DNA from: an uncultured Lachnospiraceae bacterium | Lineage (GTDB): Bacteria; Bacillota; Clostridia; Lachnospirales; Lachnospiraceae | NCBI GenBank assembly: GCA_947382625.1 | Contig: CANDAG010000029.1 | Span: 1 to 47,555, forward strand | DNA: 47,555 nt | Reading direction: 5' to 3' | Shown here: positions 28,720 through 46,391 of the stretch, piece after piece | How the letters are laid out: every line of letters begins with the position of its first letter | Numbering within the stretch: position 1 is the first letter of the stretch | The notes under the pieces: model-generated | Told to the model about the DNA's origin: nothing | The model's database searches: none | What the model saw: the letters and a program-made list of their open reading frames with translations, nothing else | Translations under genes and position numbers: made by a program

Positions 28720-30129
28720 TTAATAGGCATTTTTGTTGATAAATCCCTTGAAAAGGGTCAGGAACATGATCTTGATGTCCATTCCCATGGTCCAGTTCTC
28801 AATATAAAAAAGATCGTACTCCACTCTTTTGCGGATAGAGGTATCGCCCCGATAACCGTTGATCTGAGCCCAGCCGGTGAGTCCCGGCCTTACCTGGTGC
28901 TTGATCATGTAACGGGGTATCTCCTCCTTAAACTTTTCTACAAACTGGGGGCGCTCCGGCCTTGGCCCCACCAGAGACATTTCTCCCACAAGGATATTAA
29001 AAAGCTGAGGGAGCTCATCTAAACTGGTACGGCGCAGGAATTTCCCCACGCCGGTCACCCGGGGATCATCCTTGACTGTCCATGCCTTCTGCTCTGCCGT
29101 ATCCTTCTGCATTTCCATGGTTCTGAATTTATACATTTTAAAGGTCTTATTATGAAGGCCTACTCTTTCCTGTTTAAAGATCACGGGCCCCCGGCTGGTA
29201 AGCCGCACGGCGAGAGCCGCCGCCAACATGATGGGAGAGGACAGGATGATCCCCGCCAAAGCCCCCACAATATCCATGGCTCTTTTGGAAACCCAGTTTA
29301 AGGTATTGGTCAAAGGTACATACCTGATATTGATCACCGGAAGCCCCATAAGATCCTCAGTATAAGGATGACTGGGAACCAGAGAATTATAATCCGGGAT
29401 AAACTTGGTATGGACACCGGACTTTTCACACAGATCAACGATAGCCTCCAGACGGTCATAATCCTTAAGAGCCAGGGTAATTGCAATCTCATCCAGGCTG
29501 TTTTCGGGAAGGATATACCTGATATTGGCGATCCGTCCTACCACCCTCACCCCTTTATAAACGGTTCCGCTGGGGATTCTGTCATCTAAGATCCCCCGTA
29601 CCACATACCCCCATTGGGGATTGGCATTGATCCTGGTGATATACTCCTCTGCCGCCCGGGAATAACCGATCAGCAGAATATATTTTAAATTGTAGCCTTT
29701 TTTGCGGAAATAAAGCAGAAGATTGCGGATCAGAGTCCGGTAGACCGCAGCGAACAGAATGTTTATGACAAAAAAAGCCCCCATCATAAACCGGGAGAAA
29801 TCCTGTTGCTTGATCATATAGAGAAATACAATAAAAAAGACTATCCCCACCACATTGGCCTTAAAAAGGCCTTCAAGCTCTAACTTACGTCTGGTGGCAC
29901 GCTTGGGCGCGTACAGATTAAAGAAATAATAAAGGACAATATATTCAGGCACAACAAAATACAGGAAGCTGAAATAGGTTCCCATATCCAACGCGCCTGC
30001 ACCGGGCTCCGTGTCGGCAAATATGGTGCAGAACTTGATATACCATGCAAGCAGATAGGAAATCGCCACTACCACGGCATCCATCAGCAAATGCAATCGA
30101 TTAAAATATTTCTGGTTGTCCTTGATCAT
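28720..30129 (-). CDS. Polyprenyl-phosphate sugar phosphotransferase (WbaP/CpsE-type)
   Basis: This enzyme would start polysaccharide synthesis by moving a hexose-1-phosphate onto undecaprenyl phosphate. From the chosen ATG the protein has 469 residues: several N-terminal helices (about 10-120), a middle Rossmann-like segment (LKYILLIGYSRAAEEYI), and the C-terminal bacterial sugar transferase domain (KRAMDIVGALAGIIL, VIFKQERVGLHNKTFKMYKFRTM, TSLDELPQL, VRPGLTGWAQ). The ATG at 30129 begins at the family N-terminus and has a weak AAGG; an ATG at 30183 has no ribosome site. It lies 161 bases after a GT2 gene, with a GC-rich hairpin (CCGGC/GCCGG) in that gap. Confidence 0.92.
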   Translation of the reverse strand: MIKDNQKYFNRLHLLMDAVVVAISYLLAWYIKFCTIFADTEPGAGALDMGTYFSFLYFVVPEYIVLYYFFNLYAPKRATRRKLELEGLFKANVVGIVFFIVFLYMIKQQDFSRFMMGAFFVINILFAAVYRTLIRNLLLYFRKKGYNLKYILLIGYSRAAEEYITRINANPQWGYVVRGILDDRIPSGTVYKGVRVVGRIANIRYILPENSLDEIAITLALKDYDRLEAIVDLCEKSGVHTKFIPDYNSLVPSHPYTEDLMGLPVINIRYVPLTNTLNWVSKRAMDIVGALAGIILSSPIMLAAALAVRLTSRGPVIFKQERVGLHNKTFKMYKFRTMEMQKDTAEQKAWTVKDDPRVTGVGKFLRRTSLDELPQLFNILVGEMSLVGPRPERPQFVEKFKEEIPRYMIKHQVRPGLTGWAQINGYRGDTSIRKRVEYDLFYIENWTMGMDIKIMFLTLFKGFINKNAY

Positions 30130-30290
30130 ATTCTGCTGCCTTCTGATCACCGGACATTCATAGGCTGCCCGGCAATGCTTCATTGCATAGGATCACACTC
30201 CGGCGGAGCCGGACCGTTACCATATCTTACAATATTATTACAAAAAATACAACTCCAAAGTGATATTGCTGCCTTCTATCATAGCTTTCA

Positions 30291-31253
30291 CTATAGCAGC
30301 CTTCTCACTGTATTGATCCACAGCTGTCCCTGGATCCACATATAATTTCTCATGTGTGAAAAAGAAAACCTCACCTTATGACACCGCCCCCCGGGGCTGG
30401 CTGACAGCTTAAGTCCCTCCATGATCCCTTTTAAATATGCTGCCCCCATTCCTTTCCTGATGAAAAAAAGGGCTTTTACCATAAATCCCGCCAGCAAAAA
30501 GGGCATATTCAGAAGTATCTGCAAAAAAGGCATATTCTTGTAAATCAGGTAAACACTGTTCTGTGCGGACAGCCTTACCTTAAAATCATTGTGACGTGAG
30601 CCGCTGACAGCGCTTCCTGCATGATACACCCTTGCCTCCGGCGTATAAATATTATAATATCCATAAATATCAGCACGATACCCGATATCCGTATCCTCCA
30701 GATAGGCAAAGTGATTTTCATCAAAATAACCAATGTTATCAAACACCTTTTTCCGATAGATCGCAGCGCCTGCACAGGCCGAAAAGATCCGGCAGGGCTT
30801 ATCGTAATTCTGTGAAGGCCTGTCCTTTCCTCTGGCAAACGCCCAGCCCAGGGCGCAATACAGATCTCCTGCGCCGTCTAACAGCTCCGGTGCATCCATC
30901 CGCAGCATCCTGGCTCCTGCGGAAAACGCCCTTGGTTCTTTGGAAAGAGCCTTTTCCAGGTTTTCTACCATTTTCCCATCCGCTTCCGTATCATTGTTGA
31001 GCAGCAGCACATACTCTGTGGAGGCTGCTTTGATCCCCGCATTCACCGCATTGGAAAATCCCGTGTTTCTGTCAAATTCTATGAGCCGTACCTTTTCATA
31101 TTTTTGACTCACCAGCTCCCTGCTTCCATCCTCAGAGCCGTTATCCACAACAATGATCTCCGGTATCCTGGTTCCCCGGTAAAGAGACTGCAGACATCCG
31201 TCAATATATTTCATGCCGTTATAATTTGGTATCACTACCGTTGTTCTTGTCAT
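30291..31253 (-). CDS. GT2-family glycosyltransferase (WbbL-like)
   Basis: The 320-residue protein has an N-terminal GT-A domain: TVVIPNYNGMKYIDGCLQSL, the donor site LLLNNDTEADG, and the acceptor-side base region YFDENHFAYLEDTDIGYRA. A hydrophobic, basic tail (about 235-280) probably attaches it to the membrane. The pattern is that of WbbL-type rhamnosyltransferases. The start ATG overlaps the stop of the preceding gene in ATGA, a sign of translational coupling; an upstream in-frame start at 31310 lies inside that gene and is unlikely. Confidence 0.88.
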   Translation of the reverse strand: MTRTTVVIPNYNGMKYIDGCLQSLYRGTRIPEIIVVDNGSEDGSRELVSQKYEKVRLIEFDRNTGFSNAVNAGIKAASTEYVLLLNNDTEADGKMVENLEKALSKEPRAFSAGARMLRMDAPELLDGAGDLYCALGWAFARGKDRPSQNYDKPCRIFSACAGAAIYRKKVFDNIGYFDENHFAYLEDTDIGYRADIYGYYNIYTPEARVYHAGSAVSGSRHNDFKVRLSAQNSVYLIYKNMPFLQILLNMPFLLAGFMVKALFFIRKGMGAAYLKGIMEGLKLSASPGGRCHKVRFSFSHMRNYMWIQGQLWINTVRRLL

Positions 31254-32695
31254 TTCGGATTCCTCATTCTGCGCCGCTTTGGCTGCTTCTCGGTCATGGC
31301 AGGATCCCATACGATCCGAAAGCCGGCCTTCCTTACCTGCTCACAGAATTTACAGCTCAGCTCCACATAATTCTGTTCCGTCAAGTGTCCCTGTTCCTTC
31401 AGACAATCCCTCCAGTCAAATCTCCCCGTCTCCGGATGCCGAAGATAAGGATGACCGATCAATTCCTCTAAAATAGTCTCCGCCTGGCGGGAGGCCTTCA
31501 TGCAGCGGATATCGATGGCCTCCGCATCCTGCTGGAGCGATGCCCTGTGCATATAGCCGCTGTACTCTCTGTGCAATCCCTGGTAAAGCGCCTTTCCATC
31601 GGCTGTATACAAACCTCCTGTTATTCTGTTTCGGCTATCCAGCAGTTTTCCGCCTACCACCGCCACATCCTCTCTGACTGAAAGCAGATCCGGCTGATAT
31701 TCCACCCGATAAAATCCCAGATGCCTTAAATGAGACACCTCTGCCCTCCATCCCTTAAGGCGCAAAAAATCTTCCACCGCACGTTTTCCGGCATCATAGG
31801 CATACTGCTTGCTGGCAGGGTTCTCGGCCGTAGACTGGGTATGACACCGCCAATGGTAGAGCACTCTGGGAATATGCGCGACGGGGAGTACACCTTCGCC
31901 ATTCCTGTTCCCATTTCCGCCACACTTCTCCTTCCCCGACATTCTGCCAAGACAGCGCAGTACGATATCATAGTCCTGGGCACCGTCACATACACTGCGG
32001 AATCCAAGCTCCTGCATGAGCTGTCTTTTCATTACCGTAAAATGACAGATGTAATTATTTGTCAGTACCAGATCCAGATTAAAATCCGGCTTTTTGTTCA
32101 CCTCAAAATACCTTTCCTCATGCGCATCGCATTTATCCTCATCGGAATACAAAAGCAAAAGCCGGATCCCCTCCTGCCTGTATTTCTCAATACAGGATGC
32201 CATCTCAAAAAGTGCATCAGGCGTCAGCACATCATCATGATCTAAAAGTCCTGCGTAATCTCCTGTAGCGTACATCAGAGCCTGGTTGGTGTTGGCAGAT
32301 ATTCCCGTATTTTGCTTCAGTCTTTTGTATCTGATCCGGGGATCTTTATAGGTCTTTACCACCTTTTCCACCTGATCTCCCTTACTGGCGTCAGCCAGGA
32401 TCAGCTCAAATTTTCCATAGGTTTGCCCAAGGACGGAGTCGATCATTGCCCTCAGATACTCCTCCCTGGTCTCGAAGGCAGGCACAAGAAGACTAAATTT
32501 TATATCCATGGTCTCTGATCTGCGGCGCTGCTTTTGCAAAATGGTCTCCTCCACCGGCTTATAGGTATAATTTTCCTTTCCCTCGGTGTCGATCCTCTCC
32601 CTTATTGCGTAGCAGGCCTGCCGTAATCCGTTTTTTTTCAGATAGTGCAGTGTTTTTTTTAAATTGACGGCCGTTATTATTTTGCCCATTTTCAT
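31250..32695 (-). CDS. GT2-family glycosyltransferase
   Basis: The 481 residues have a basic N-terminal lead (about 1-60) and one GT-A domain (FSLLVPAFETREEYLRAMIDS, GDYAGLLDHDDVLTPDAL, LYSDEDKCD, ICHFTVMKRQLM, DGAQDYDIVLRC). A C-terminal extension follows, with little catalytic signature left of a second module. It resembles the first half of the tandem GT2 proteins encoded at 34663 and 36653. Start is ATG at 32695 (AAGGGG very close) or 32689 (better spacing). It overlaps the next gene by ATGA. Confidence 0.87.
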   Translation of the reverse strand: MKMGKIITAVNLKKTLHYLKKNGLRQACYAIRERIDTEGKENYTYKPVEETILQKQRRRSETMDIKFSLLVPAFETREEYLRAMIDSVLGQTYGKFELILADASKGDQVEKVVKTYKDPRIRYKRLKQNTGISANTNQALMYATGDYAGLLDHDDVLTPDALFEMASCIEKYRQEGIRLLLLYSDEDKCDAHEERYFEVNKKPDFNLDLVLTNNYICHFTVMKRQLMQELGFRSVCDGAQDYDIVLRCLGRMSGKEKCGGNGNRNGEGVLPVAHIPRVLYHWRCHTQSTAENPASKQYAYDAGKRAVEDFLRLKGWRAEVSHLRHLGFYRVEYQPDLLSVREDVAVVGGKLLDSRNRITGGLYTADGKALYQGLHREYSGYMHRASLQQDAEAIDIRCMKASRQAETILEELIGHPYLRHPETGRFDWRDCLKEQGHLTEQNYVELSCKFCEQVRKAGFRIVWDPAMTEKQPKRRRMRNPK

Positions 32696-32853: not shown

Positions 32854-34575
32854 TTACAGATATGACTTAAGCGCCTCTGTCAGCTTCTCCACCTTATCCT
32901 GAGCGTCCTCAAGACTGCTTCCTTTCACTCCCATATAGAATTTGATCTTGGGCTCTGTCCCGGAAGGACGGGCACAGCACCAGGAGTCATTGGTAAGGTC
33001 AAAATAAAGCACGTTGGATTTCGGCAGTCCTGTAGGCTTCTCTTCTCCTGTGGTCAGATCCCTGGTCACATTTCTGTCATAATCCCTGAATTCCCTTACG
33101 GTAAGCTCACCAAAGCTCTTAGGCGGATCGTTCCGTAATTTATCCATCATTTCCGCGATCTGCTTGGAACCATCGATTCCCTTTAAGGTAATGGCATACT
33201 GGGTTTCCTTGTAATAACCGTATTTTTCGTAGAGTCTGATCATCTGATCCCATACGGTGATACCGTTCTTCTTGCACCAGGCAGCCATCTCGCACAGGCA
33301 CATAACCGCCACAACCGCATCTTTGTCTCTTGCATGGGTACCTGCCAGGCAGCCATAGCTTTCCTCTAAGCCAAACACATAGTTATTTGAATTATTCTGT
33401 TCAAAAAGCTTGATCTGCTCACCGATATATTTGAAGCCGGTGAGAACCTCTATGAATTTCACATTGTAATCCCTTGCAATGGCCCCTGCCATATTGGTGG
33501 TTACGATGGTAGTTACCAGCGCGGGATTTTCCGGCATGGTGTTTGTTGCCGTTCTTTCTCTTAAAATATATTCTGCGATCAACATACCGGACATATTTCC
33601 TGTAAACGGAATGTACTCCCCCGTTTTGGTGTCAAGCGCGTAGATTCCCAGTCTGTCCGCATCCGGATCTGTGGCAAGGACAATATCCGCATTCTTTTCT
33701 TTTGCCAGCTGAAGGGCCAGGGTAAATGCCTTGGGATCCTCCGGATTAGGATATTCCAGTGTGGTGAAATCCGGATCGGGAAGCTCCTGCTCCGGTACTA
33801 CATAAACATTCTTAAATCCAAGCTCGGAGAGGATTCTTCTTACCGGCACATTTCCAGTTCCGTGGAAAGGAGAGTAAACGATCTTGATCTCATCTGCAAC
33901 CTCCTTAATGATCTCCGGATGGATGATCTGCTTTTTCAGTTCCTCCATGTAAGCGTCGTCAATCTCTTTTCCGATCACCTGATAAAGACCTGCCGCAATG
34001 GCTTCTTCCTTGTCCATGGTTTTCACCTGGCCGTAATCGGTAACCTTCTTCACCTCGTCAATGATCTCTTTATCCCTGGGTGCCGCCACCTGGGCGCCGT
34101 CCTCCCAGTAGGCCTTATATCCGTTATATTCCGGCGGATTATGGCTGGCCGTGATCACGATACCCGAAATGCAATGGAGCTTACGGAGAGCAAATGACAA
34201 CTCCGGTGTAGGCCGAAGAGCGTCAAACACATAAGCCTTGATGCCGTTGGCCGCCAGACACAACGCCGCCACATCTGCAAATTCGGGAGACATTCTCCTG
34301 GAATCATAGGCGATGGCCACTCCCTTTTCCTTCCCGCCCTGGCTGATGATATAATTGGCAAGCCCCTGGGTTGCCTTTCTTACCGTATAAATATTCATAC
34401 GATTGGTTCCCGCGCCGATCACGCCGCGAAGGCCTCCCGTACCAAACTCCAGCTCTTTATAAAAACGATCCTCAATTTCCTTCTCGTTTCCTGCGATCCC
34501 CCGGAGCTCCTCCTTGGTGTCCTCATCAAAATACGCGTCCTTAAGCCAAAAATCGTATTCTTCCCTATAGCTCAT
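32854..34575 (-). CDS. Phosphoglucomutase/phosphomannomutase family enzyme (PgcA-type)
   Basis: This enzyme interconverts hexose 6- and 1-phosphates. It would supply glucose-1-phosphate for RfbA or a related precursor. The 573 residues show the active serine loop TASHNPPEYNGYK (S144), the metal loop ATDPDADRLGIY, the sugar-binding GLEESYG loop and the phosphate site RPSGTEPKIKFY. The length matches alpha-phosphoglucomutases of the PgcA type. It has its own promoter (34646-34674) in the end of the upstream GT2 gene and its own hairpin terminator, so it can be expressed apart from the cluster. Confidence 0.93.
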   Translation of the reverse strand: MSYREEYDFWLKDAYFDEDTKEELRGIAGNEKEIEDRFYKELEFGTGGLRGVIGAGTNRMNIYTVRKATQGLANYIISQGGKEKGVAIAYDSRRMSPEFADVAALCLAANGIKAYVFDALRPTPELSFALRKLHCISGIVITASHNPPEYNGYKAYWEDGAQVAAPRDKEIIDEVKKVTDYGQVKTMDKEEAIAAGLYQVIGKEIDDAYMEELKKQIIHPEIIKEVADEIKIVYSPFHGTGNVPVRRILSELGFKNVYVVPEQELPDPDFTTLEYPNPEDPKAFTLALQLAKEKNADIVLATDPDADRLGIYALDTKTGEYIPFTGNMSGMLIAEYILRERTATNTMPENPALVTTIVTTNMAGAIARDYNVKFIEVLTGFKYIGEQIKLFEQNNSNNYVFGLEESYGCLAGTHARDKDAVVAVMCLCEMAAWCKKNGITVWDQMIRLYEKYGYYKETQYAITLKGIDGSKQIAEMMDKLRNDPPKSFGELTVREFRDYDRNVTRDLTTGEEKPTGLPKSNVLYFDLTNDSWCCARPSGTEPKIKFYMGVKGSSLEDAQDKVEKLTEALKSYL

Positions 34576-34645: not shown

Positions 34646-34674
34646 ATTGTACCACAGTTTTCCTATATTTTCAA
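34646..34674 (-). promoter_or_regulatory. Sigma-A promoter of the phosphomutase gene
   Basis: On the minus strand TTGAAA is followed after 17 bases by TACAAT. The -35 box lies inside the last codons of the GT2 gene that stops at 34663. Start of RNA would be near 34639, with a leader of about 64 bases. Confidence 0.75.
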
Positions 34675-36687
34675 AGCAAAGTCGCTTCTATCCAGAGAAA
34701 AGTTGGGATTATAATAAGGATCCCCTGCCTCCAGTACTTTTTTCCACTTTTTCCTGAACTGATCCGACTCCCGGTTATAGCGCTCTGCCTTTTCTCCCTG
34801 GTCATCCAGTCCCCGGGATGCAGATTCAAAATGATAAAGCTCCGCAAAAGGAGTAAACACATTTAAATAGCCCTTTTCCCGCAGCTTTAAGCAGAAATCA
34901 ACGTCATTCAAAGAAATGGCAAAGGACTCCTCCAGGCCTCCCACCTCCTCAAACAGCTTCTTTTTCACAAGAAGGCAGGCTCCTGTCACCGCCGACACAT
35001 CCTGAGCATAGCAAAGCCTTCCCATATAACCCATGTTTTCCTGAGGCTGCTTATAATGGCTGTGGCCCGCTGTTCTATGAGCTCCCAGCCCCAACACCAC
35101 TCCTGCGTGCTGTATTCCCTTATCTGCAAAATAAAGCTTGGCGCCCACGGCTCCCACATCCTCCCGCTGGGCATACATCAAAAGCTCCTCCAGCCAGTTT
35201 ACCGTGATCACCTGGGTATCATTGTTCAGGAAAAGCAGATAAGCGCCGTCTGCCTCAGAGGCTCCGAAGTTGTTTACCGCAGAATAATTAAAGGGCTTAT
35301 CCGTCTTATACTCCACTACCCGTATCCTTTTATTTTCTGCAAGCTCCTCATAATAATCGAAGGTTTCTTTATCACAGCTGTTATTTTCCACTACAATGAT
35401 CTCATAATTTTCGTAGGTAGACTTCTCAAGGATCGATGTGATGCACCTTTTCAGATCTGCCGCATGATCCTTGTTAGCAATAACAATTGATATCTTAGGG
35501 CTGCCGATGATCTGATAACGGATCTTAAAGATGGTCTCGAAGGCTCTGGTGGAGGTGATCTGAAAATGTTCAAAGCCATGCCGCCTTAAATGGTCAGCCA
35601 CCGCCCCCTTGGCCGACTCTATGGCATAGGGCTTGGCAGAAATATCTGCCGCAGTGCTTCCCGGATGACTTCTCCAGTAGTACAAAAGCTTAGGCACATG
35701 AACTACATTCCTGGCCCTGTCAGTGAGGCGCAGGATCATATCGTGATCCTGGCTTCCGTCAAATCTGGTGCGGAACAGTTCTGTACCGTCTAACAGCTCT
35801 CTGGCAAAAACACTGAAATGACAGATGTAATTATTGGCCCTCAGATTATCAATGGCATAATCCGGCTTAAAATGCAGGGTGATCATCTTATTAATATCCC
35901 CGCTTTTGAAGGTGGTTTCATCACAATATATGTAGTCCGCCTCTTTTTCATTGATCACCTTCACATATTCATAGAGAGCGCAGGGATGAAGAATATCATC
36001 ATGATCAAAAAGGCCGATATACTCCCCTGTGGCCAGTGTAAGACACTGATTTGTATTCCCGGAAATCCCTTCGTTCTTTACAAGCTTCTTATACCTGATC
36101 CTTGGCCCCCACTCAGGGTCCTCTCCCAGACGATCCTGATACTCCTTTACCACAGCCTCCACATTGGAGTGGGCTTCGTCAGAGCCATCTGCCAGGCAAA
36201 GCTCCCAATTCGGATAGGTCTGGTTCACCACAGAGTCTATCATTTCCCGCAAAAAATCCTCCGGTGTATTATAAAGAGGCACCAGAATACTGATCTTTAC
36301 CATTCTGGGAAAACGCTCTTCCCGCTCTCGGGCGGCCTCCTCCGGGTCAGGAAAGCTTTTGGTTCCATAATTTTCTCTGGCCTTCAGCTCAATTTTTTTA
36401 TAGTTCAGCCGACCGATAAATCCACGCAGATTCCCGCAATTCTTAAGCCTGTCTCTCTGCCTGAGAACAAAATGCATACACCTTCTAAGAGGAGCAGACA
36501 TTTTCCAGAGAGGATTCGTCTTGATCCGGTTCAGCTTAAAGGCGAGCTCCGCGTTTTTTGCCTCGAGATCTGCGATCCGTCCGGCAAGATCCGCATTCTG
36601 CAGATGCTCCTTTTCGTAAGCCGCCCGGTAATCCATCCCGGTTTCTTCTCTGTTATTCCTTTCCTTCTCTGACACTTTGTCTGCCAT
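34663..36687 (-). CDS. Tandem-domain GT2 glycosyltransferase
   Basis: The 674 residues carry a short coiled coil (about 20-62), then two complete GT-A modules. The first has KISILVPLYNTPEDFLREM, TGEYIGLFDHDDILHP, YCDETTF and a DGSQDHDMILRL block. The second begins KISIVIANKDHAADLKRC and has YLLFLNNDTQVITVNWLEE, IQHAGVVLGLGAHRTAGH and SLNDVDFCLKLREKGY. Two active sites on one chain suggest a polymerase adding two alternating residues, as in polymannose or rhamnan synthases; this is inference. GGAGG 9 bases before the ATG supports a start that overlaps the preceding gene by 35 bases. Confidence 0.9.
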   Translation of the reverse strand: MADKVSEKERNNREETGMDYRAAYEKEHLQNADLAGRIADLEAKNAELAFKLNRIKTNPLWKMSAPLRRCMHFVLRQRDRLKNCGNLRGFIGRLNYKKIELKARENYGTKSFPDPEEAAREREERFPRMVKISILVPLYNTPEDFLREMIDSVVNQTYPNWELCLADGSDEAHSNVEAVVKEYQDRLGEDPEWGPRIRYKKLVKNEGISGNTNQCLTLATGEYIGLFDHDDILHPCALYEYVKVINEKEADYIYCDETTFKSGDINKMITLHFKPDYAIDNLRANNYICHFSVFARELLDGTELFRTRFDGSQDHDMILRLTDRARNVVHVPKLLYYWRSHPGSTAADISAKPYAIESAKGAVADHLRRHGFEHFQITSTRAFETIFKIRYQIIGSPKISIVIANKDHAADLKRCITSILEKSTYENYEIIVVENNSCDKETFDYYEELAENKRIRVVEYKTDKPFNYSAVNNFGASEADGAYLLFLNNDTQVITVNWLEELLMYAQREDVGAVGAKLYFADKGIQHAGVVLGLGAHRTAGHSHYKQPQENMGYMGRLCYAQDVSAVTGACLLVKKKLFEEVGGLEESFAISLNDVDFCLKLREKGYLNVFTPFAELYHFESASRGLDDQGEKAERYNRESDQFRKKWKKVLEAGDPYYNPNFSLDRSDFALKI

Positions 36688-39025: not shown

Positions 39026-42000
39026 CTAAAATGATTTCTTCACCGAATCAAAAACATCTTCTGCCAGGCCAATTGAGACAGATGATATCTCAAGTTTAAT
39101 TTTAAGGGTATTTTGTATGGTCACAGGAAGCTCTGAAAGCTTGATATTGATATTGGGATCCTGGGTGTCAAAAATATAACCTCCTGCTTTCATTTTTTTG
39201 CCGTTTATCTCCACATATTTCTTCTGCACAGGTATGGGAACATCATTCAGCGTCAGCTCCATGATCCTCAGAACACAGCAATGGTTTGAAGGATCGACTC
39301 TCACCGCCTTTACACTGCCATCCAGGGAAATTTCTGCTTCCAAATGGCTCTCATCTGTGTAAACATCCTCTATATAATAGGATTCCTCCTCGTGAAAACC
39401 GTATCCCTTATCGATGTAAATCTGTATCCTGTGTTCTTCCACATCCTTAAGATGCCGCTGTATCAGCTTTTGAGGCTCTGCATGGTAAGAAACCGTCCCG
39501 ATGGTAGCTCTGATCTCGCCCATAGACTCCCTCTTTCCGGTTACCTGCTTTTGAAATTTCGCCTCTCTCTTCCGGTATTCCTCTGCCATATCAGGAGTGA
39601 TATGTAATTTATCCATGATCACATTCCAATCCAGCTTATTTCTCTTTTCTTCAGCGAGTACATAGCAGTAGATTGCACGAAACGCGATTTCCGAAGCCTG
39701 CATCTCCTGTTTCATGGTCCATTCATAATCGATTACCGTCCAATCCTCACCATCCACCAATATATTTCCAAAGATCAGATCATAATCAGTGACTGCCTTA
39801 TCTCCCTTTGCTGTATTTTCTCCATAAGAGATCAGATCATAATACCTGTCAAACAACCGGTAAAAGCCCTCCATATCCTCTTTTGCCAGGCATTCATCCA
39901 GAAGCTCTTCCAATGTAACGCCTTTTTCATAGGCAAATTCCGCATTGCCATCCGCGGAAAGCCTGCAGGAATTAATGGAAAGGCCGCTGCCCTTATACCG
40001 CTCCTTCAAAAACTCGTAAGAACGCTTCATCCCCCTCACATGACCTCTGGATTCTTCATTCAAAGGAATTTTTCTGACCAGCTTTCCTTCCTTTGTATCT
40101 GCAATTTCCGTTCTGAGCGCATATTTTTCCGCCCGGTCATTGGAATATTTCACATAGTCGGTATCCGAATCCTTACCGATCAGTATCAGATAGGAATTAG
40201 AAAATACACCAAATAAGCCGTCCCTGACAATACTGTCAAATACATACTTTTCATTGAAGAGCACCAGTCTGTCCCGATCAAAGTTACGCATGTTATCTGT
40301 TAATTCACCTGTGTTCGGCAATCTTTTATCTGAATAGATCACTGTGGGAAACTTGTAATCTGGATAGGGATAGTAGAAGGAATATTGGCTGATGCCACAG
40401 CTTTTGAAAAGCCTTTCCAGTCCCTGGCGGGTAAAGGTACGAGCACTCCCCCCTTCCGGATATCCTTCCAATCCACTGAAATAGGTTCCCAGATGGTCCT
40501 CACTGCAGCCGGCCCAGTATTTCAGCCCGAACTTATTCTCTATGGCAATCACAATACGCCCGTTATCCTTCATATGCTTTTGAATGATCTTTAAAAAATC
40601 CTCATAGGGCGTCCGGGTATGCATATAAGACTGCCCGTATTCAAATACCCCGATCAGACAAATGAAATCATAGTCCATGGGAAGGGATGGCTCTATATCT
40701 TCAAAATTCCCTACATGGATCTCAATATTATCCCTGTCCTGATTCCTGTATGCATTAATGCGGCTTCTCTTCGCCGAAAGCTCCACACAGGTAACGCTTC
40801 CCGCCTTTTCGGAAAGCTTTTCCGTAATGGCCCCGCATCCGGCGCCGATCTCAAGAACCTTGTCTTCCGGCCCAATGGGCAGCCAGTCCACAATATTCCC
40901 CCGCAACGGAGAGAGATGATACAGAACAGGCCAGCTTTTTCTCTTTTCGATGATAGAGGGATATTCCACACGGGAGGCGTTCCTCACAATAGAGAGGATC
41001 TCATCCTCAATCTCTCCGTCACTGTACAGATCGTTTCCGGAATAACAATCGAAATTTAATTTTACCTTTCCGATCTTATCCGGCGTCAGGTTCACCAGCT
41101 CTTCCTCCTTTAGATGAACAGGTGCCGGGCGCACTGCCGCTTCCCTCAAAACCTGCTTCTTTTCTGTCTTTTCCGGGTCTTCTCCTTTTTCTGTCTCTTC
41201 TGTCTCCTGCATCGCCACTCCCTGCTTTTGCACTTTATTTACGCCTGTCTGTTCCTCTGTATCCAGGATATTCTTTTCCCGATTCCCTTTCCCCTTCTCT
41301 TCCGGTTCGATCCCGGCAACCGTTATACTTGAGTTGGTATCGTAATAGCCTACCGTATCCTTATCCGAGATCACCGTAAGATCCATTACATCATAAAGCC
41401 TGTGATAGACTTTAAAATCCTCATTTTCATAACCGGTCACTCCAAGAGAAAGCAGATACTCGCCCCCCTGCAGATCAAGCCTCTGGGAAAAGGTAATGTG
41501 CTTTACCGTTCCTTTCTCTACAGACTCCAGAAAGGCCTTCTCCACCATGGTATTCGTTCCGGTAATTTCCACACCCTTGATATTTTTGATGGTAAATGCA
41601 AAGATAGGCTCCTGAATGTCCTCTATAAACCGAACCGTCATATGGACCGCACACTTCTGTCCCTTAATGATGGCGCTGCTTTTGCGTCCTGACTCATCCG
41701 TAATATAGTATTCCTCAATGACTGCAGCTTTGGTTCCATACTCCAGCAATTCCGGATTGATGACCACACCGCCTTCCTCCGGATGAGACTTCTCATCTTC
41801 ACCTGAAACAGCTCCGGTCTCTTCCTTCGGATCCTCTGACTGCAGAGACTCTCCTGCAGGATCCGCCCCATCCTCCAGATCCCTCTCTGCCTCCGGGATC
41901 GGATATTGTCCTACAAGAACCTGCTTATAGGCATCGATCATCTCCTTGGGAGAGCCTTCCCCCAGCTTCACTCCCTGATTAAGCAATACTACCCTGTCGC

Positions 42001-42646
42001 AATACTTGCTAATGCTGCTCAGATCGTGGCTTACAAATACGATGGTCTTGCCCATGCTCTTAAACTCTTCAAATTTGTGGTAGCATTTTGCCTGAAAGAA
42101 TACATCCCCTACCGACAAGGCTTCATCCACGATCAGGATCTCCGGATCGATATTGATCGCCACAGCAAAAGCCAGCCGCACAAACATGCCGCTGGAATAG
42201 GTTTTAACAGGCTGATAAACATAATCTCCGATATCTGCAAAGCTTAAAATATCATCCAGCCTTTCATCGATCTCCTTTTCGGAGAAACCGATCATAGTGC
42301 CGTTCAGATAGACATTCTCAATGCCGTTATATTCCATATTGAACCCGGCTCCCAGCTCCAGCAGAGCGGAGATACGACCATTCACCTCCACGCTGCCGCC
42401 TGTAGGATTCAAAACACCTGTTATGATTTTCAGAATGGTAGATTTCCCAGATCCATTGGTTCCGATGATCCCCACGGTTTCTCCCTGGGAGATGGTAAGA
42501 TCAACCCCCTTTAAGGCATAATGCTCCTTATAGCCCTTCTTTCGGGAAAGCCCTAAAGATTCCTTCAGCCGGTCGGAAGGTTTATCATATAGCTTATACG
42601 CTTTTTCCAGGTTCTTCACCTGTATGGCAATTTTTTGTCCATCCAT
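39026..42646 (-). CDS. Wzt-type ABC ATPase fused to methyltransferase and kinase-like domains
   Basis: From the chosen ATG the protein has 1206 residues. Domains in order: a polysaccharide-export ATPase (1-250; Walker A GTNGSGKS 62-69, signature YSSGM 150-154, Walker B LIVDEAL 171-177, SHD 206-208); an acidic linker; a Wzt C-terminal-like beta domain (about 300-447); a charged linker (448-515); a class I SAM methyltransferase (about 530-830; motif I VLEIGAGCG 597-605, acidic VELS 621-624); a kinase-like domain (about 845-1000; D956-x4-N961 and D973 in VIDYEW, spaced as in kinases); a short helical stretch; and a C-terminal beta-rich region (1073-1195). GGGAG 6 bases before the ATG sets the start. 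It lies 42 bases after its permease. Wzt proteins are usually 250-430 residues. I infer export coupled to modification of the chain end. Confidence 0.85.
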   Translation of the reverse strand: MDGQKIAIQVKNLEKAYKLYDKPSDRLKESLGLSRKKGYKEHYALKGVDLTISQGETVGIIGTNGSGKSTILKIITGVLNPTGGSVEVNGRISALLELGAGFNMEYNGIENVYLNGTMIGFSEKEIDERLDDILSFADIGDYVYQPVKTYSSGMFVRLAFAVAINIDPEILIVDEALSVGDVFFQAKCYHKFEEFKSMGKTIVFVSHDLSSISKYCDRVVLLNQGVKLGEGSPKEMIDAYKQVLVGQYPIPEAERDLEDGADPAGESLQSEDPKEETGAVSGEDEKSHPEEGGVVINPELLEYGTKAAVIEEYYITDESGRKSSAIIKGQKCAVHMTVRFIEDIQEPIFAFTIKNIKGVEITGTNTMVEKAFLESVEKGTVKHITFSQRLDLQGGEYLLSLGVTGYENEDFKVYHRLYDVMDLTVISDKDTVGYYDTNSSITVAGIEPEEKGKGNREKNILDTEEQTGVNKVQKQGVAMQETEETEKGEDPEKTEKKQVLREAAVRPAPVHLKEEELVNLTPDKIGKVKLNFDCYSGNDLYSDGEIEDEILSIVRNASRVEYPSIIEKRKSWPVLYHLSPLRGNIVDWLPIGPEDKVLEIGAGCGAITEKLSEKAGSVTCVELSAKRSRINAYRNQDRDNIEIHVGNFEDIEPSLPMDYDFICLIGVFEYGQSYMHTRTPYEDFLKIIQKHMKDNGRIVIAIENKFGLKYWAGCSEDHLGTYFSGLEGYPEGGSARTFTRQGLERLFKSCGISQYSFYYPYPDYKFPTVIYSDKRLPNTGELTDNMRNFDRDRLVLFNEKYVFDSIVRDGLFGVFSNSYLILIGKDSDTDYVKYSNDRAEKYALRTEIADTKEGKLVRKIPLNEESRGHVRGMKRSYEFLKERYKGSGLSINSCRLSADGNAEFAYEKGVTLEELLDECLAKEDMEGFYRLFDRYYDLISYGENTAKGDKAVTDYDLIFGNILVDGEDWTVIDYEWTMKQEMQASEIAFRAIYCYVLAEEKRNKLDWNVIMDKLHITPDMAEEYRKREAKFQKQVTGKRESMGEIRATIGTVSYHAEPQKLIQRHLKDVEEHRIQIYIDKGYGFHEEESYYIEDVYTDESHLEAEISLDGSVKAVRVDPSNHCCVLRIMELTLNDVPIPVQKKYVEINGKKMKAGGYIFDTQDPNINIKLSELPVTIQNTLKIKLEISSVSIGLAEDVFDSVKKSF

Positions 42647-42688: not shown

Positions 42689-43720
42689 TCAAAGGACATC
42701 TGCAAAATGAACCTTCAATCGCTTAAAGATCAAAGAGCCTATGCAGAACAATGTCACCGTAAAAATCCAAAAATACGTAGAAGAATAAAAATGCTCAAAA
42801 AACCATTCGTCGCCATAAATGGCATTCCGATATCCATTCACAATATAAACAAGAGGATTCAGCTTAAAAAGGGTAATAACCTTATCATTGGAAAGCATAT
42901 TAATATCCCAAAGCACCGGGGTTGCCCACATTCCGACCTGCAGCCCTATGTTGATGATCTGGATCAGATCCCTGAAGAACACGGCAATGGCACAGGTACA
43001 GTAGCTCATAGCCAATACCAGGACAAAAAGGCAAAAGCTGTAATAGAACACCTGCAGGGTATAAACCGTAGGATAATACCCGTAGCAGACAGCTACCACC
43101 AGCAATACCCCCACAAAAAACAGATGGATAAAGGTTGCCGCTATCAGTTTAATGATCGGAAGGATACTGATATTGAATACTACTTTTTTTACCAGATAGC
43201 TGTACTCCAGCAGAGCGCTGGTTCCATTGGTGATCGCTTCCGAAAAATAAAACCAGGGCACAAGACCCGCTGTTAAATACAGAACATAAGGCACCTCCAC
43301 GCCGCTGGCCAGCATCTGTGCCTTCGTATTAAACACTTTATCAAACACCAGCCAATACATAACAACCGTTACCACCGGTTGCACCAACGCCCATACAAAG
43401 CCCAGATAGGAGCCCGCATACCGCTTTTTAAAGTCATTTTTTGACAGCTTCCATATCAGCTTTCTGCTGTGGAAAAGCTCCTTGGGGATAATGAACATTC
43501 TGTCATAATACAGGCCGAAAATAATACAGGCAAGTGCAAGCAGCGCACAGGCGCAATACTTTTTCAGATCCTCTGTATGCTGATCGGGGGCAAGGGGATT
43601 ATTATGCATAAGCACCAGAATGGCAACGATCCCGCAGATCCCGTAAAAGATGCCGATCCCTACTGGCTTTGGCAAGTTTTTCAGGTAAGTCTTCCAGCTT
43701 TTTTCCCTGCTATGCTTCAT
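42689..43720 (-). CDS. ABC-2 type polysaccharide export permease (Wzm/TagG/RgpC-like)
   Basis: This is the membrane channel partner of the fused ATPase. The last 265 residues are a standard ABC-2 permease with six helices and the conserved start SRKLIWKLSKNDFKKRYAGSYLGFVWALV. The distal part reads GMWATPVLWDINML and LNPLVYIVNGYRNAIYGDEW. In front of it is an unusual extension of about 80 residues with two hydrophobic segments (about 20-38 and 53-70), absent from typical 260-residue homologues. It starts 4 bases after rfbC, with only a weak ribosome site, so translation may be coupled. Confidence 0.92.
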   Translation of the reverse strand: MKHSREKSWKTYLKNLPKPVGIGIFYGICGIVAILVLMHNNPLAPDQHTEDLKKYCACALLALACIIFGLYYDRMFIIPKELFHSRKLIWKLSKNDFKKRYAGSYLGFVWALVQPVVTVVMYWLVFDKVFNTKAQMLASGVEVPYVLYLTAGLVPWFYFSEAITNGTSALLEYSYLVKKVVFNISILPIIKLIAATFIHLFFVGVLLVVAVCYGYYPTVYTLQVFYYSFCLFVLVLAMSYCTCAIAVFFRDLIQIINIGLQVGMWATPVLWDINMLSNDKVITLFKLNPLVYIVNGYRNAIYGDEWFFEHFYSSTYFWIFTVTLFCIGSLIFKRLKVHFADVL

Positions 43721-43724
43721 ATTA

Positions 43725-44291
43725 TTATCCGTTCTCTCTGTTTTTGGTGTATTCTCTGATACCGCACCAGTTTTTGTCTCTCTCGGCCATGATCAGCTCT
43801 GTGCCGGGAGCTACAGGCCATTCAATGCCGATATCCGGATCATCGAATCTAAGTCCGCCCTCATCTCCGGGATGATAAAAGTCTGTACATTTATAGGCAA
43901 ATTCCGCATAATCCGAAAGCACCAAAAAACCATGGGCGAAATTTTTCGGAACAAAAAACTGCTTTTTGTTTTCGGCGGAGAGTAAAACTCCTTTCCATTT
44001 TCCGTAGGTTTCAGATCCCGGGCGCAGATCCACCGCCACATCAAATACCTCGCCGGATATCACCCTCACCAGCTTGTCCTGGGGATGATCGATCTGAAAA
44101 TGCAGACCTCTGAGTACATTCTTCACGGAAGAAGACTGGTTGTCCTGAACAAACACCTGATCAATTCCTGCTTCCTTAAAATCGTTATAATTATAGGTTT
44201 CCACAAAATAACCCCGTGCATCCCCGAACACTGTGGGGGTAATGATCTTTAATCCCTCGATCTCACAAGTTTCAACTGTTATTTTTCCCAT
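43725..44291 (-). CDS. rfbC: dTDP-4-dehydrorhamnose 3,5-epimerase
   Basis: This cupin-fold epimerase acts on dTDP-4-keto-6-deoxyglucose on the way to dTDP-L-rhamnose. The 188 residues contain the active-site stretch VLRGLHFQIDHPQDKLVRV with the catalytic histidine, GEVFDVAVDLRPGS and FAHGFLVLSDYAEFAYKCTDFY. It lies 47 bases after rfbA. The last gene of the pathway, rfbD, is not in the window. Confidence 0.95.
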   Translation of the reverse strand: MGKITVETCEIEGLKIITPTVFGDARGYFVETYNYNDFKEAGIDQVFVQDNQSSSVKNVLRGLHFQIDHPQDKLVRVISGEVFDVAVDLRPGSETYGKWKGVLLSAENKKQFFVPKNFAHGFLVLSDYAEFAYKCTDFYHPGDEGGLRFDDPDIGIEWPVAPGTELIMAERDKNWCGIREYTKNRENG

Positions 44292-44338
44292 GACCGTATC
44301 CTGTCCCTTCTAAATTAAATCAGTCCTGTATCCTTATC

Positions 44339-45208
44339 CTACAGTCCGTCCGCAACTTCCTTCATATATTTTCCATAATCCGTCTTCATCAAAGGCTCTG
44401 CCAGCTTTAAGAGCTGCTCTCTGTCTATAAATCCTCTCTTAAAGGCAATCTCCTCAATACAGGAAATGTAGAGTCCCTGGCGCTTCTGCACCGCCGATAC
44501 AAAGTCTGCCGCGGCAAGCAGCGCGTCATGGTTTCCGGTGTCCAGCCACGCAAACCCCCGTCCTAAGGTCTCCACATGAAGCGTTCCCCGTCTTAAATAT
44601 TCATTATTGATGCTGGTGATCTCAATTTCTCCCCTGGCAGAGGGCTTCACATTGGCTGCGATCTCCACAACGTCATTATCATAAAAATACAGCCCGGGCA
44701 CCGCATAATTACTCTTGGGATTCTCCGGCTTTTCTTCAATGGAAAGGGCTTTCCCTGTCTCATCAAACTCCACAACTCCATATTCCTTTGGATCCCGCAC
44801 ATAATATCCGAAAATCGTCGCCCCTTTTTCTCTGGCCACCGCTTCCTTCAGCACTCTCGAAAAGCTCTGCCCGTAAAAAATATTATCTCCCAGCACCAGC
44901 GCCACATGATCCTTCCCGATAAAGTCCGCTCCGATGATAAAAGCGTCTGCAAGTCCCCGGGGTGTCTCCTGAACGGCATAGGCAATTTCCATACCCAGCT
45001 GACTCCCGTCCCCCAAAAGCTCCTCAAACACCGGCAGATCCCTGGGTGTGGAAATGATCAATACTTCCCTGATCCCTGCCAGCATAAGGGTCGACAGAGG
45101 GTAATAGATCATCGGCTTATCATAAACAGGCATGATCTGCTTGCTGATCGCCTTGGTCAAAGGATAAAGTCTGGTCCCAGACCCTCCCGCTAAAATAATT
45201 CCTTTCAT
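44339..45208 (-). CDS. rfbA: Glucose-1-phosphate thymidylyltransferase
   Basis: This enzyme activates glucose-1-phosphate to dTDP-glucose. The 289 residues begin [20 protein letters not shown], with the nucleotide loop and the [20 protein letters not shown] block; VLGDNIFYG supplies the metal-binding aspartate. The chosen ATG (45208) matches the family start; in-frame codons up to 45238 are not conserved. It is separated from rfbB by 100 bases holding a promoter-like site and a hairpin. Confidence 0.95.
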
Positions 45209-45249
45209 CTTAACTACCATACCTTTCCGCAATATCAACTATCTGTTAT

Positions 45250-45279
45250 AGTCTACCACAAAATGGGAATGATTGTAAA
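45250..45279 (-). promoter_or_regulatory. Candidate promoter before rfbA
   Basis: On the minus strand TTTACA is followed after 18 bases by TAGACT. The -35 box lies in the hairpin described at 45261-45291, so the same DNA could serve as promoter or, as RNA, as attenuator. Confidence 0.45.
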
Positions 45280-45291
45280 TCACCCCCATTT
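45261..45291 (-). terminator. Strand-specific hairpin between rfbB and rfbA
   Basis: As minus-strand RNA two 14-base arms (45278-45291 and 45261-45274) pair completely, two of the pairs being G-U, around a 3-base loop. As plus-strand RNA the same two positions would be A-C mismatches, so the fold favours the coding direction. Only four T follow, so it may be a weak terminator or attenuator. Confidence 0.5.
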
Positions 45292-45308
45292 CACAAGATC
45301 TGATGTTT

Positions 45309-46391
45309 TTAACGGTCTTTATACATTTCCTCGTAATATTTCTGATAATCGCCGCTGGTCACATTCCGCATCCACTCTTCATGCTCAAAGAACCATGCAA
45401 TGGTACGTTTGATCCCCTCCTCAAATCTGGTTTCAGGCTCCCATCCAATCTCCGCCTTAATCTTATCAGGAGCAATGGCGTATCTTCTGTCATGCCCTTT
45501 TCTGTCCTCCACATAGGTGATCAGATCCTCGCTGACCAGCTCTCTGCGTGGATCATTCTCAGGAAGCATCTCCTTAAGGGTATCCAGGATGATATGGATA
45601 ATCTCTATATTCTGCTTCTCGTTGTGGCCTCCCACATTGTAGGTCTCAAACAGCCGTCCCTTTTCCTGGACCATATCAATGGCCTTGGCATGATCCTCCA
45701 CATACAGCCAGTCCCGGACATTCTTTCCATCCCCGTAAACCGGCAGCTTTTTGCCTGAAAGGGCGTTGTTGATGATCAAAGGGATCAGCTTCTCCGGGAA
45801 CTGATAAGGGCCGTAGTTGTTGGAGCAGTTGGTGATATTGGCCGGAAACTTGTAGGTATCCATATAAGCCTTAACCAGCATGTCCGATCCCGCCTTGCTG
45901 GCAGAATAGGGGCTGTGAGGCGCATAGGGCGTAGTTTCATAAAAAAAGCCGCCATCCTCACTGAGAGAACCGTACACCTCATCTGTCGACACATGCAGGA
46001 ACTTTTTGTCTGGCTTAAAGGTTCCGTCCGGGTTCTCCCAGGCAGCCTTTGCACAGTTGAGCATTACCGCCGTTCCCAGCACATTGGTCTGCACAAATAC
46101 CTCCGGCGTCACAATGCTTCTGTCCACATGGCTCTCCGCTGCAAAATGCACCACTCTGTCAATGTCATTTTCTGCAAAAACTCTGGCGATGGCCTCCTTA
46201 TCACAGATATCCGCCTTTACAAAGGTATAATTATCTCTGCCCTCCAGGTCCTTCAGATTTTCAAGATTCCCTGCGTAGGTAAGAACATCCACGTTAATGA
46301 TCCTGATGTCCCTGTCATATTTTCTGAACATATAATGAATGTAATTAGACCCGATAAAGCCGGCCCCGCCTGTTACCAGATAAGTTCTCAT
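45309..46391 (-). CDS. rfbB: dTDP-glucose 4,6-dehydratase
   Basis: This NAD-dependent dehydratase makes dTDP-4-keto-6-deoxyglucose. The 360 residues have the Rossmann motif TGGAGFIGSNYIHYM, HFAAESHVDRSI, the STDEVYGSL catalytic loop and YSASKAGSD (Tyr and Lys of the dehydrogenase-like site), and the NNYGPYQFPEKLIPL substrate segment. AGAAGG precedes the ATG. It follows the GH25 gene by 53 bases and may share its transcript. Confidence 0.96.
   Translation of the reverse strand: MRTYLVTGGAGFIGSNYIHYMFRKYDRDIRIINVDVLTYAGNLENLKDLEGRDNYTFVKADICDKEAIARVFAENDIDRVVHFAAESHVDRSIVTPEVFVQTNVLGTAVMLNCAKAAWENPDGTFKPDKKFLHVSTDEVYGSLSEDGGFFYETTPYAPHSPYSASKAGSDMLVKAYMDTYKFPANITNCSNNYGPYQFPEKLIPLIINNALSGKKLPVYGDGKNVRDWLYVEDHAKAIDMVQEKGRLFETYNVGGHNEKQNIEIIHIILDTLKEMLPENDPRRELVSEDLITYVEDRKGHDRRYAIAPDKIKAEIGWEPETRFEEGIKRTIAWFFEHEEWMRNVTSGDYQKYYEEMYKDR

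What the first reader, a model, noticed from the sequence alone, without database searches (positions are those of the whole stretch)
39026..42646. One-polypeptide Wzt-WbdD-like machine: export ATPase, cap-binding domain, methyltransferase and kinase in a Gram-positive cluster
Seen: a 1206-residue chain with a complete ABC ATPase, a Wzt C-terminal-like domain, a SAM methyltransferase with VLEIGAGCG, and a kinase-like domain in which D956, N961 and D973 keep protein-kinase spacing (D-x4-N, then D 12 residues on). Known: in E. coli O9a, WbdD (methyltransferase then kinase) caps polymannose with methyl phosphate and the Wzt C-terminal domain recognises the cap for export. The domain order after the ATPase is the same here. 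Inference: this bacterium may fuse chain termination, cap recognition and transport, giving length control in a wall polysaccharide. The natural substrate would be the glycan made by the tandem GT2 proteins next door.
Basis: partly seen in the sequence, partly recalled or inferred. Interest (0 to 1): 0.85.

Follow-up and report, generated by a model that had tools for sequence, protein, structure and literature searches.

The report
Sugar-chain capping enzyme fused to exporter
A gut bacterium of the Lachnospiraceae makes one long protein that probably caps a growing rhamnose-type surface sugar chain with a methyl-phosphate group, recognises that cap and powers export of the chain; the same parts occur as two neighbouring proteins in many relatives, so the fusion is a rare twist on a widespread and little-studied system.

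Summary
The ORF is real: 1206 aa, minus strand (42646..39026): ABC ATPase, Wzt cap-binding domain, SAM methyltransferase (MTase), kinase-like domain, C-terminal beta-domain. The Wzt part is 38% identical to E. coli O9 Wzt across both its domains. AlphaFold2 plus Foldseek support the MTase-kinase order (WbdD structures are the top PDB hits; the kinase model matches kinases), but sequence similarity to WbdD is nearly nil. By sequence the half matches Gram-negative proteins on Pseudomonas and Citrobacter plasmids; the Pseudomonas one carries the residues published for K. pneumoniae ORF6-O7, a terminator that puts methyl-phosphate on O3 of a terminal rhamnose. The tandem GT2 protein nearby is 41% identical to the polymerase half of the Pseudomonas protein: same modules, divided differently. 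The MTase-kinase lies beside Wzt in many Lachnospiraceae. A clean fusion was seen only here and in one sister species; a third apparent case rests on ambiguous bases. No coiled-coil ruler was found in the fused chain; a short one starts the polymerase. Best reading: a Gram-positive methyl-phosphate capping system with the terminator tied to the exporter. Cap chemistry, polymer and length control are inferred.

The parts
39026..42646 (-). Fused Wzt-MTase-kinase-beta-domain protein, 1206 aa, ATG start at 42646
   Evidence: open in a sister species too
41897..42646 (-). ABC ATPase (NBD) of Wzt, aa 1-250, with Walker A, signature, Walker B and H-loop motifs
41339..41743 (-). Wzt C-terminal cap-binding domain, aa 302-436; HRLYD motif with R416 and D419 invariant in the 78 related loci aligned
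41135..41311 (-). Acidic E/K-rich linker made by the fusion, about aa 446-504; contains a possible internal ATG at aa 479
40322..41134 (-). MTase module with its conserved leader (RPAPVHLKEEEL, from about aa 506) and SAM motif (aa 597-605), to about aa 775
39617..40192 (-). Kinase-like domain, about aa 819-1010; K859, D956, N961, D973, E975 invariant in 53 relatives
39077..39430 (-). C-terminal beta-domain, about aa 1073-1190, in the place of the Ig-like CBM reported for ORF6-O7; its fold class was not established; only a short helix follows
   Evidence: alignment by eye with the Pseudomonas protein; BLASTP of this domain alone found no match
42689..43720 (-). Wzm, membrane subunit of the exporter
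   Evidence: ABC2_membrane 3e-16; homologue in 60 of 60 loci of 21.9 kb or more
34663..36687 (-). Tandem GT2 protein, likely polymerase; 41% identity over 546 columns to the GT half of the Pseudomonas protein
36517..36624 (-). Short predicted coiled coil at the N-terminus of the tandem GT2, about aa 22-57, conserved in the 25 homologues printed
   Evidence: own crude heptad score
36653..39007 (-). Second GT2 protein, next to the fused gene (784 aa)
43725..46391 (-). rmlC, rmlA, rmlB: dTDP-rhamnose route; no clear rmlD in this assembly, but strong ones in the genus
28720..30183 (-). Polyprenyl-phosphate sugar-1-phosphate transferase (WbaP-like, name recalled), likely initiating enzyme
   Evidence: Bac_transf 7e-73; 31 of 60 long loci, a lower bound because the gene lies at the edge of the 10-kb flank
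30291..32695 (-). Two further GT2 proteins of the cluster
32854..34575 (-). Phosphoglucomutase/phosphomannomutase family protein
   Evidence: 55 of 60 long loci
27317..28456 (-). LytR-CpsA-Psr protein, candidate for attaching the polymer to peptidoglycan; its conservation was not tested, as it lies beyond the 10-kb flank of the related loci
   Evidence: LytR_cpsA_psr 1e-32

Best explanation
This is a Gram-positive chain terminator of the ORF6-O7 type fused to the export ATPase Wzt. A rhamnose-type polymer is built on a lipid carrier in the cytoplasm (WbaP-like starter, tandem GT2 polymerase). The kinase domain phosphorylates the non-reducing end sugar, probably O3 of rhamnose, and the MTase methylates that phosphate, which stops growth. 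The Wzt cap-binding domain on the same chain binds the capped end, and the NBD with Wzm exports the polymer, which is then attached at the cell surface. Since ABC ATPases work as dimers, the fusion would place two terminator units at each exporter. Shown here by computation: domain order, fold match, invariant catalytic residues, homology to Gram-negative proteins of this type, adjacency. Inferred: the activities, the methyl-phosphate cap, the rhamnose substrate, the attachment, and that tethering speeds or gates the hand-off.
For: Wzt half 38% identical to E. coli O9 Wzt, E 1e-90; Wzt_C 1e-38. AF2 model of aa 526-1206, pLDDT 87.5: top three PDB hits are WbdD (4azt, 4ax8, 4azs; E 7e-10 to 6e-9; 537-548 columns, 11-12% identity). 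Kinase + C-terminal model (pLDDT 84.7): best hits Rio1, Rio2, Bud32/PRPK, then APH(2'') and macrolide phosphotransferases. Catalytic residues invariant in 25 and 53 relatives. tblastn of plasmids, 2 records hit: Pseudomonas asturiensis (29%, 2e-43) and Citrobacter braakii (26%, 1e-32) over residues 16-516 of the 681-aa query, both directly after an ABC permease and ATPase pair. The Pseudomonas protein has Y28, Y66, G91, G93, E112, Y158 exactly as published for ORF6-O7, and a D-x4-N Asp at 443 against D441. ORF6-O7 adds methyl-phosphate to O3 of terminal Rha, and D441A abolished its activity (PMC11231755, section 11 part 1). Tandem GT2: 41% over 546 columns to the same Pseudomonas protein. Arg at R416 in 78 of 78 related loci, in O9 Wzt and in both Gram-negative Wzts, where the Aquifex protein (methyl-only cap) has its Trp. 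Wzm, RmlA and RmlC homologues in 60 of 60 long loci.
Against: No activity shown. The ORF6-O7 sequence itself was not held, so the identity of its family with the Pseudomonas type rests on published residue numbers. The kinase segment alone is only weakly similar to the Pseudomonas protein (22%, 6e-6) and not detectably to the Citrobacter one; the beta-domain alone has no match. The Citrobacter protein has Glu where the window has D973. Only 4 of 53 relatives hit Pfam Pkinase, best 1e-5; the window's own sequence does not. Foldseek superpositions have large rmsd and low TM-scores. WbdD's essential His132/His133 are not conserved (FEY instead), though the Gram-negative relatives share the E-Y. 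No coiled coil in the chain. In 8 of the 29 family loci L005-L033 MTase and kinase are separate frames. No clear rmlD in this 88%-complete assembly. The own-genome paralogue breaks the Arg correlation (Asn, beside a kinase-like partner).
Confidence: 0.6

Rival explanations
1. The kinase makes the cap and the MTase does something else, for example a phosphate or cyclic phosphate end, or methylation of a sugar hydroxyl, so the cap is not methyl-phosphate.
For: C. difficile Ox247 S-layer glycan ends in 2,3-cyclophosphoryl-rhamnose and is exported by an ABC transporter (PMC6254364, passages). Geobacillus WsaE puts a plain 2-O-methyl cap on rhamnose (PMC2943079, passages). WbdD's His132/133 are absent. 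In 8 of 29 family loci MTase and kinase are separate frames.
Against: MTase, kinase and C-terminal domain are in one frame in 80 of 80 loci (chosen for similarity to the query), and ORF6-O7 does both steps on one phosphate.
Confidence: 0.2
2. The fused protein is made as two products, full-length plus a shorter MTase-kinase from an internal start, so the fusion has little mechanistic meaning and is near-neutral loss of a stop codon.
For: Of 26 genus loci classified (29 examined), 9 have the two genes in one frame separated by one or two stops. Internal ATGs remain in both fused species. The clean fusion is limited to one sister pair.
Against: The frame has stayed open in two species whose proteins are 74% identical, and the MTase leader is kept inside the fused chain.
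Confidence: 0.25
3. The kinase-like domain is catalytically dead or acts on a protein, and the protein is only an MTase terminator like WsaE.
For: Weak sequence similarity to known kinases; catalytic loop DYDLIFGN instead of the HRD of protein kinases (HRD recalled).
Against: K859, D956, N961, D973 and E975 invariant in 53 relatives; kinase-fold matches; D441 of ORF6-O7, which corresponds to D956 through the Pseudomonas protein, is needed for activity.
Confidence: 0.12
4. The polymer is not a rhamnan but another 6-deoxyhexose or mixed polymer.
For: No clear rmlD in this assembly.
Against: RmlD-family matches at E 1e-20 or better in 35 of 37 genus genomes, including the fused sister G183; GT homology to the ORF6-O7-like Pseudomonas polymerase half.
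Confidence: 0.2

Closest known systems
ORF6-O7 of Klebsiella pneumoniae O7 (MTase-kinase-CBM-coiled coil-GT2-GT2; PMC11231755)
   Same: MTase, unannotated kinase and a beta-domain in the same order; SAM-site and catalytic residues in matching places through a Pseudomonas homologue; homologous tandem GT2; rhamnose genes in the cluster
   Different: The terminator is fused to Wzt instead of the polymerase; no coiled coil in the terminator chain; Gram-positive host; the ORF6-O7 sequence itself was not compared
WbdD of E. coli O9a (4AZS)
   Same: MTase then kinase, next to Wzm-Wzt with cap-binding domain; top Foldseek hit
   Different: No meaningful BLAST similarity; His132/His133 not conserved; no C-terminal coiled coil; mannose rather than rhamnose genes
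WsaE of Geobacillus stearothermophilus (PMC2943079, passages)
   Same: Gram-positive, rml genes, WbaP-like starter, wzm and wzt with the terminator gene directly behind, multidomain terminator
   Different: MTase with two GT domains, no kinase reported; S-layer protein acceptor; not fused to Wzt; sequence not compared here
C. difficile Ox247 S-layer glycan locus (PMC6254364, passages)
   Same: Clostridial rhamnose glycan with a phosphate-modified end, exported by an ABC transporter, rml genes
   Different: Cyclic phosphate cap; capping enzyme not named in the passages seen; not compared by sequence here
Wzt of E. coli O9 and Aquifex aeolicus
   Same: NBD plus cap-binding domain
   Different: Carries no terminator domains

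Membership tests
Wzt with cap-binding domain | ABC ATPase motifs followed by Wzt_C domain | tested here: met
Wzt with cap-binding domain | Adjacent Wzm membrane subunit | tested here: met
   42689-43720; 60 of 60 long loci
Wzt with cap-binding domain | Binds the capped glycan | not testable with these tools
   needs a binding assay
ORF6-O7-type MTase-kinase terminator | MTase, then kinase, then a further folded domain | tested here: met
   AF2 models; fold searches
ORF6-O7-type MTase-kinase terminator | The further domain is Ig-like (CBM) | tested here: inconclusive
   beta-rich in the models, but the 50 fold-search hits shown are kinases and BLASTP of the domain alone found nothing
ORF6-O7-type MTase-kinase terminator | SAM-site residues (Y28, Y66, G91, G93, E112, Y158) and catalytic D441 | tested here: met
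   aligned through the Pseudomonas homologue; indirect, because the ORF6-O7 sequence was not held; at the E112 place relatives have D or E
ORF6-O7-type MTase-kinase terminator | Coiled-coil ruler on the terminator chain | tested here: not met
   only a short helix after the beta-domain in the model; crude heptad score 0.54 against 0.93 in the own-genome paralogue and 0.90 in WbdD, but the Pseudomonas and Citrobacter relatives reach only 0.65-0.66
ORF6-O7-type MTase-kinase terminator | Adds methyl-phosphate to terminal Rha | not testable with these tools
   needs an enzyme assay
WbdD (O9a lineage) | Sequence homology across MTase and kinase | tested here: not met
   BLASTP no meaningful match; hhalign only the MTase core, probability 61%
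WbdD (O9a lineage) | Phosphate-MTase residues His132, His133 | tested here: not met
   FEY at this place; Arg203 not examined
WbdD (O9a lineage) | Bifunctional MTase-kinase fold | tested here: met
   top Foldseek hits; domain arrangement may differ (rmsd 15-20 A)
WbdD (O9a lineage) | C-terminal coiled coil | tested here: not met
WbdD (O9a lineage) | C-terminal membrane and polymerase docking region | not tested
Protein-kinase-like fold | Kinase fold with Lys, catalytic Asp, Asn and metal Asp | tested here: met

The most novel reading that the evidence does not exclude
Many Lachnospiraceae carry a phosphate-based chain-termination and quality-control system for a rhamnose-type surface polymer, related to that of K. 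pneumoniae O7, and in one lineage the terminator has gone from the polymerase to the exporter, so that capping, cap recognition and export happen on one molecule without a ruler on that chain.
Probability: 0.5. Interest if true: 0.72.

Novelty: new variant of a known kind. Interest (0 to 1): 0.58.

Why it matters
Rhamnose-rich surface polymers of gut Lachnospiraceae (such as the R. gnavus glucorhamnans, PMC12413058, passages) act on the immune system; how their chains are ended and released was not described in the passages I saw. This work points to a specific enzyme, a likely cap and an exporter, with catalytic residues to mutate. It also indicates that terminator modules known from O antigens have homologues in Gram-positive bacteria and can be attached to the polymerase, left free, or attached to the exporter, so the question whether the ruler is needed can be tested by comparing fused and split relatives of one genus.

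Tried and rejected
A third apparent fusion (L136) was rejected: its ORF holds 97 Ns, also across the junction, and its near neighbour in the tree, L119, is split. Reading the open frames of 1125-1217 aa as fusions was rejected for nine fetched loci, which are two ORFs in one frame parted by one or two stops; G159, not fetched, has a stop inside. Descent from WbdD is not supported by sequence; the fold similarity is kept. An E. coli genome search with the Citrobacter gene found nothing at megablast sensitivity. The ORF6-O7 sequence was not found in what I searched. The Arg416-versus-Trp correlation is suggestive only: one methyl-only example, a one-residue numbering offset read by eye, and the paralogue has Asn. 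The coiled-coil score is my own crude heptad score, not a published predictor; it scores the Pseudomonas and Citrobacter relatives only slightly above background (0.65-0.66; other window proteins up to 0.57 at 35 residues). I first read the rarity of LCP in the related loci (2 of 80) as absence; that was wrong, since the 10-kb flank would not reach it. The Henke 2019 glucorhamnan paper is not held, so its gene cluster could not be compared. Literature searches whose listings showed no paper on a Gram-positive MTase-kinase terminator or a Wzt-terminator fusion: 20 of 88 listed; 15 of 73 listed; held open-access library only, with passages read from a few hits.
Full report
1. What is there. The finding's ORF is on the minus strand, 42646 to 39026, 1206 aa from ATG. 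Pfam gives ABC_tran (45-177), Wzt_C (302-436, E 1e-38) and methyltransferase families (up to aa 750); nothing further on.

2. The Wzt half. Residues 1-449 align to E. coli HS (O9) Wzt over 440 columns at 38% identity, E 1e-90. In the PDB, aa 291-450 hit 2R5O (1e-9) and Aquifex Wzt (2e-4). In an alignment of this domain from 78 of the 80 loci (two have no Wzt on the contig), R416 and D419 are invariant; E. coli O9 Wzt and two Gram-negative Wzts of the type discussed below share both. In the PDB alignment R416 falls on what I read as Aquifex Trp362, which lids a methyl-only cap (PMC9445017, passages). This suggests a charged cap. The own-genome paralogue has Asn there, which counts against a simple rule.

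3. The MTase-kinase half. AlphaFold2 with 53 sequences gives pLDDT 87.5 for aa 526-1206. Foldseek ranks WbdD structures first to third (E 7e-10 to 6e-9, 11-12% identity, 537-548 columns); rmsd is large, so the domain arrangement may differ. A second model, aa 783-1206 (pLDDT 84.7), matches Rio1, Rio2, Bud32/PRPK, APH(2'') and macrolide phosphotransferases. K859, D956, N961, D973 and E975 are invariant among 53 relatives. A profile of 25 relatives finds methyltransferases first, then protein kinases in the PDB at E 3e-4 to 1e-3; 4 of 53 single sequences hit Pfam Pkinase, best 1e-5, the window's not among the listed hits. So a kinase fold is well supported; activity is not shown.

4. Which known family. 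BLASTP with WbdD finds nothing meaningful and hhalign only the SAM core. In contrast, tblastn of the plasmid collection gives two records: a Pseudomonas asturiensis protein (1457 aa, 29%, 2e-43) and a Citrobacter braakii protein (649 aa, 26%, 1e-32), matched over residues 16-516 of the 681-aa query, each just after an ABC permease and ATPase pair, the Citrobacter one with rml genes upstream. Taken by domain, the MTase is 38% and 36% identical to these; the kinase segment reaches only 22% and 6e-6 with Pseudomonas and no hit with Citrobacter. For K. pneumoniae O7 a terminator, ORF6-O7, is described as MTase, unannotated kinase, Ig-like CBM, coiled coil and two GT2 modules; it adds methyl-phosphate to O3 of a terminal rhamnose, and D441A abolishes activity (PMC11231755, section 11 part 1 of 2, and passages). 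The Pseudomonas protein has Y28, Y66, G91, G93, E112 and Y158 exactly as listed there, and its D-x4-N Asp at 443. These align with the window protein. The window's tandem GT2 (34663-36687) is 41% identical over 546 columns to the GT half of the Pseudomonas protein. The modules of the O7-type machine are thus present here but cut at another place: terminator with exporter, polymerase separate. The paper reports orthologues from alphaproteobacteria, gammaproteobacteria and cyanobacteria, not from Gram-positives.

5. The ruler. In published systems of this kind the terminator sits on a coiled coil that sets chain length. The model of the window protein has only a short helix after the beta-domain, and my crude heptad score (35 residues) finds no coil in the fused chain: 0.54, against 0.93 in the own-genome paralogue and 0.90 in WbdD; the Pseudomonas and Citrobacter relatives reach only 0.65-0.66, so the score is not decisive. 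The tandem GT2 has a short coil at its N-terminus (aa 22-57, 0.72), followed by NPLWKMSAPLR; the start of 25 of 70 homologues was printed and is alike. How length is set here is open.

6. Distribution. With aa 526-1206 as query, 54 of 150 family genomes (own included, each in its own genus) have a match at E 1e-60 or better (my count from the table; 102 of 150 at 1e-3, many only MTase-like; not all of the 54 are full length, and in 8 of the 29 loci L005-L033 the kinase is in a separate frame). In a class sample 25 of 391 genomes match at 1e-20, 14 of them in the same family, own included. Of the best 80 loci kept from 561 confirmed in the named collection, 78 are split; 76 of those have a Wzt on the contig, and in 73 of 76 the two stop-to-stop frames are at most 350 bases apart or overlap (frames, so start codons may lie further in). 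Among the 60 loci of 21.9 kb or more, homologues are found for Wzm 60, RmlC 60, RmlA 60, tandem GT2 59, PGM 55, RmlB 55, second GT2 (36653) 55 and WbaP-like 31. The WbaP-like gene lies at the edge of the 10-kb flank and the LCP gene beyond it, so low counts for them say nothing.

7. The fusion. In the genus 36 of 37 genomes have a match at 1e-100. Fused without a stop: the window genome and G183 only. They pair with SH-aLRT 99 in a quick tree of 76 rows. G183's locus (L034) has the same protein, letter for letter, as the named contig L071. Of 29 genus loci examined by script, 26 were classified: 1 fused, 9 with both genes in one frame, 16 in different frames. In split relatives the MTase starts with a leader like 'RPxPIHLKEEEL', which is kept inside the window's fused chain after an acidic linker of about 59 residues. 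An internal start remains possible.

8. Mechanism and status. Shown by computation: domains, fold, invariant active-site residues, homology, synteny. Inferred: kinase adds phosphate to the end sugar, MTase methylates it, Wzt binds the cap, Wzm-Wzt exports. Rhamnose is inferred from rmlABC in the window, RmlD-family matches at 1e-20 in 35 of 37 genus genomes but not in this 88%-complete assembly, and the ORF6-O7 relation. Gram-positive precedents are WsaE's 2-O-methyl rhamnose cap (PMC2943079, passages) and the cyclophosphoryl-rhamnose end of the C. difficile Ox247 S-layer glycan (PMC6254364, passages).

9. Verdict. Observation confirmed; interpretation partly supported. New variant of a known kind: a Gram-positive branch of MTase-kinase terminators, with a rare terminator-exporter fusion.

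Noticed in passing
L154 4492-10677 (own genome, contig C10): A second exporter locus whose third gene (1350 aa) joins an MTase, a kinase-like stretch (DMTFYN..YDQEW), a strong predicted coiled coil and GT domains (GT2 by Pfam; the last part looks like GT4, recalled) in one chain, close to the K. pneumoniae O7 layout.
   Followed up: partly
L154 5277-6632: The Wzt of that locus has a possible coiled coil between NBD and cap-binding domain (aa 249-284) and Asn instead of Arg at the R416 position.
   Followed up: no
L156 4207-19046: A conjugative Citrobacter braakii plasmid carries rml genes, an ABC exporter, the terminator-like gene and several glycosyltransferase genes, which looks like a surface-polysaccharide cluster.
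   Followed up: partly
L136 8558-12082: An apparent fusion that depends on 97 ambiguous bases in the ORF; such Ns can fake gene fusions.
   Followed up: yes
L041, L043, L046, L050, L051, L055, L056, L059, L062: Wzt and MTase-kinase genes in the same frame, separated by one stop (two in L041); loss or read-through of it would give a fused protein.
   Followed up: partly
window 36653-39007: GT2 protein whose Pfam GT2 matches begin only near aa 310 and whose last part (about aa 680-784) matches no family.
   Followed up: no
window 46445-47554: GH25 family protein with a choline-binding repeat and a long Pro/Thr stretch beside the cluster, cut by the window end.
   Followed up: no
L022, L025, L026, L027, L029, L030, L032, L033: Family loci in which the MTase (about 300-340 aa frame) and most of the kinase are separate neighbouring frames, so the module splits further.
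   Followed up: no
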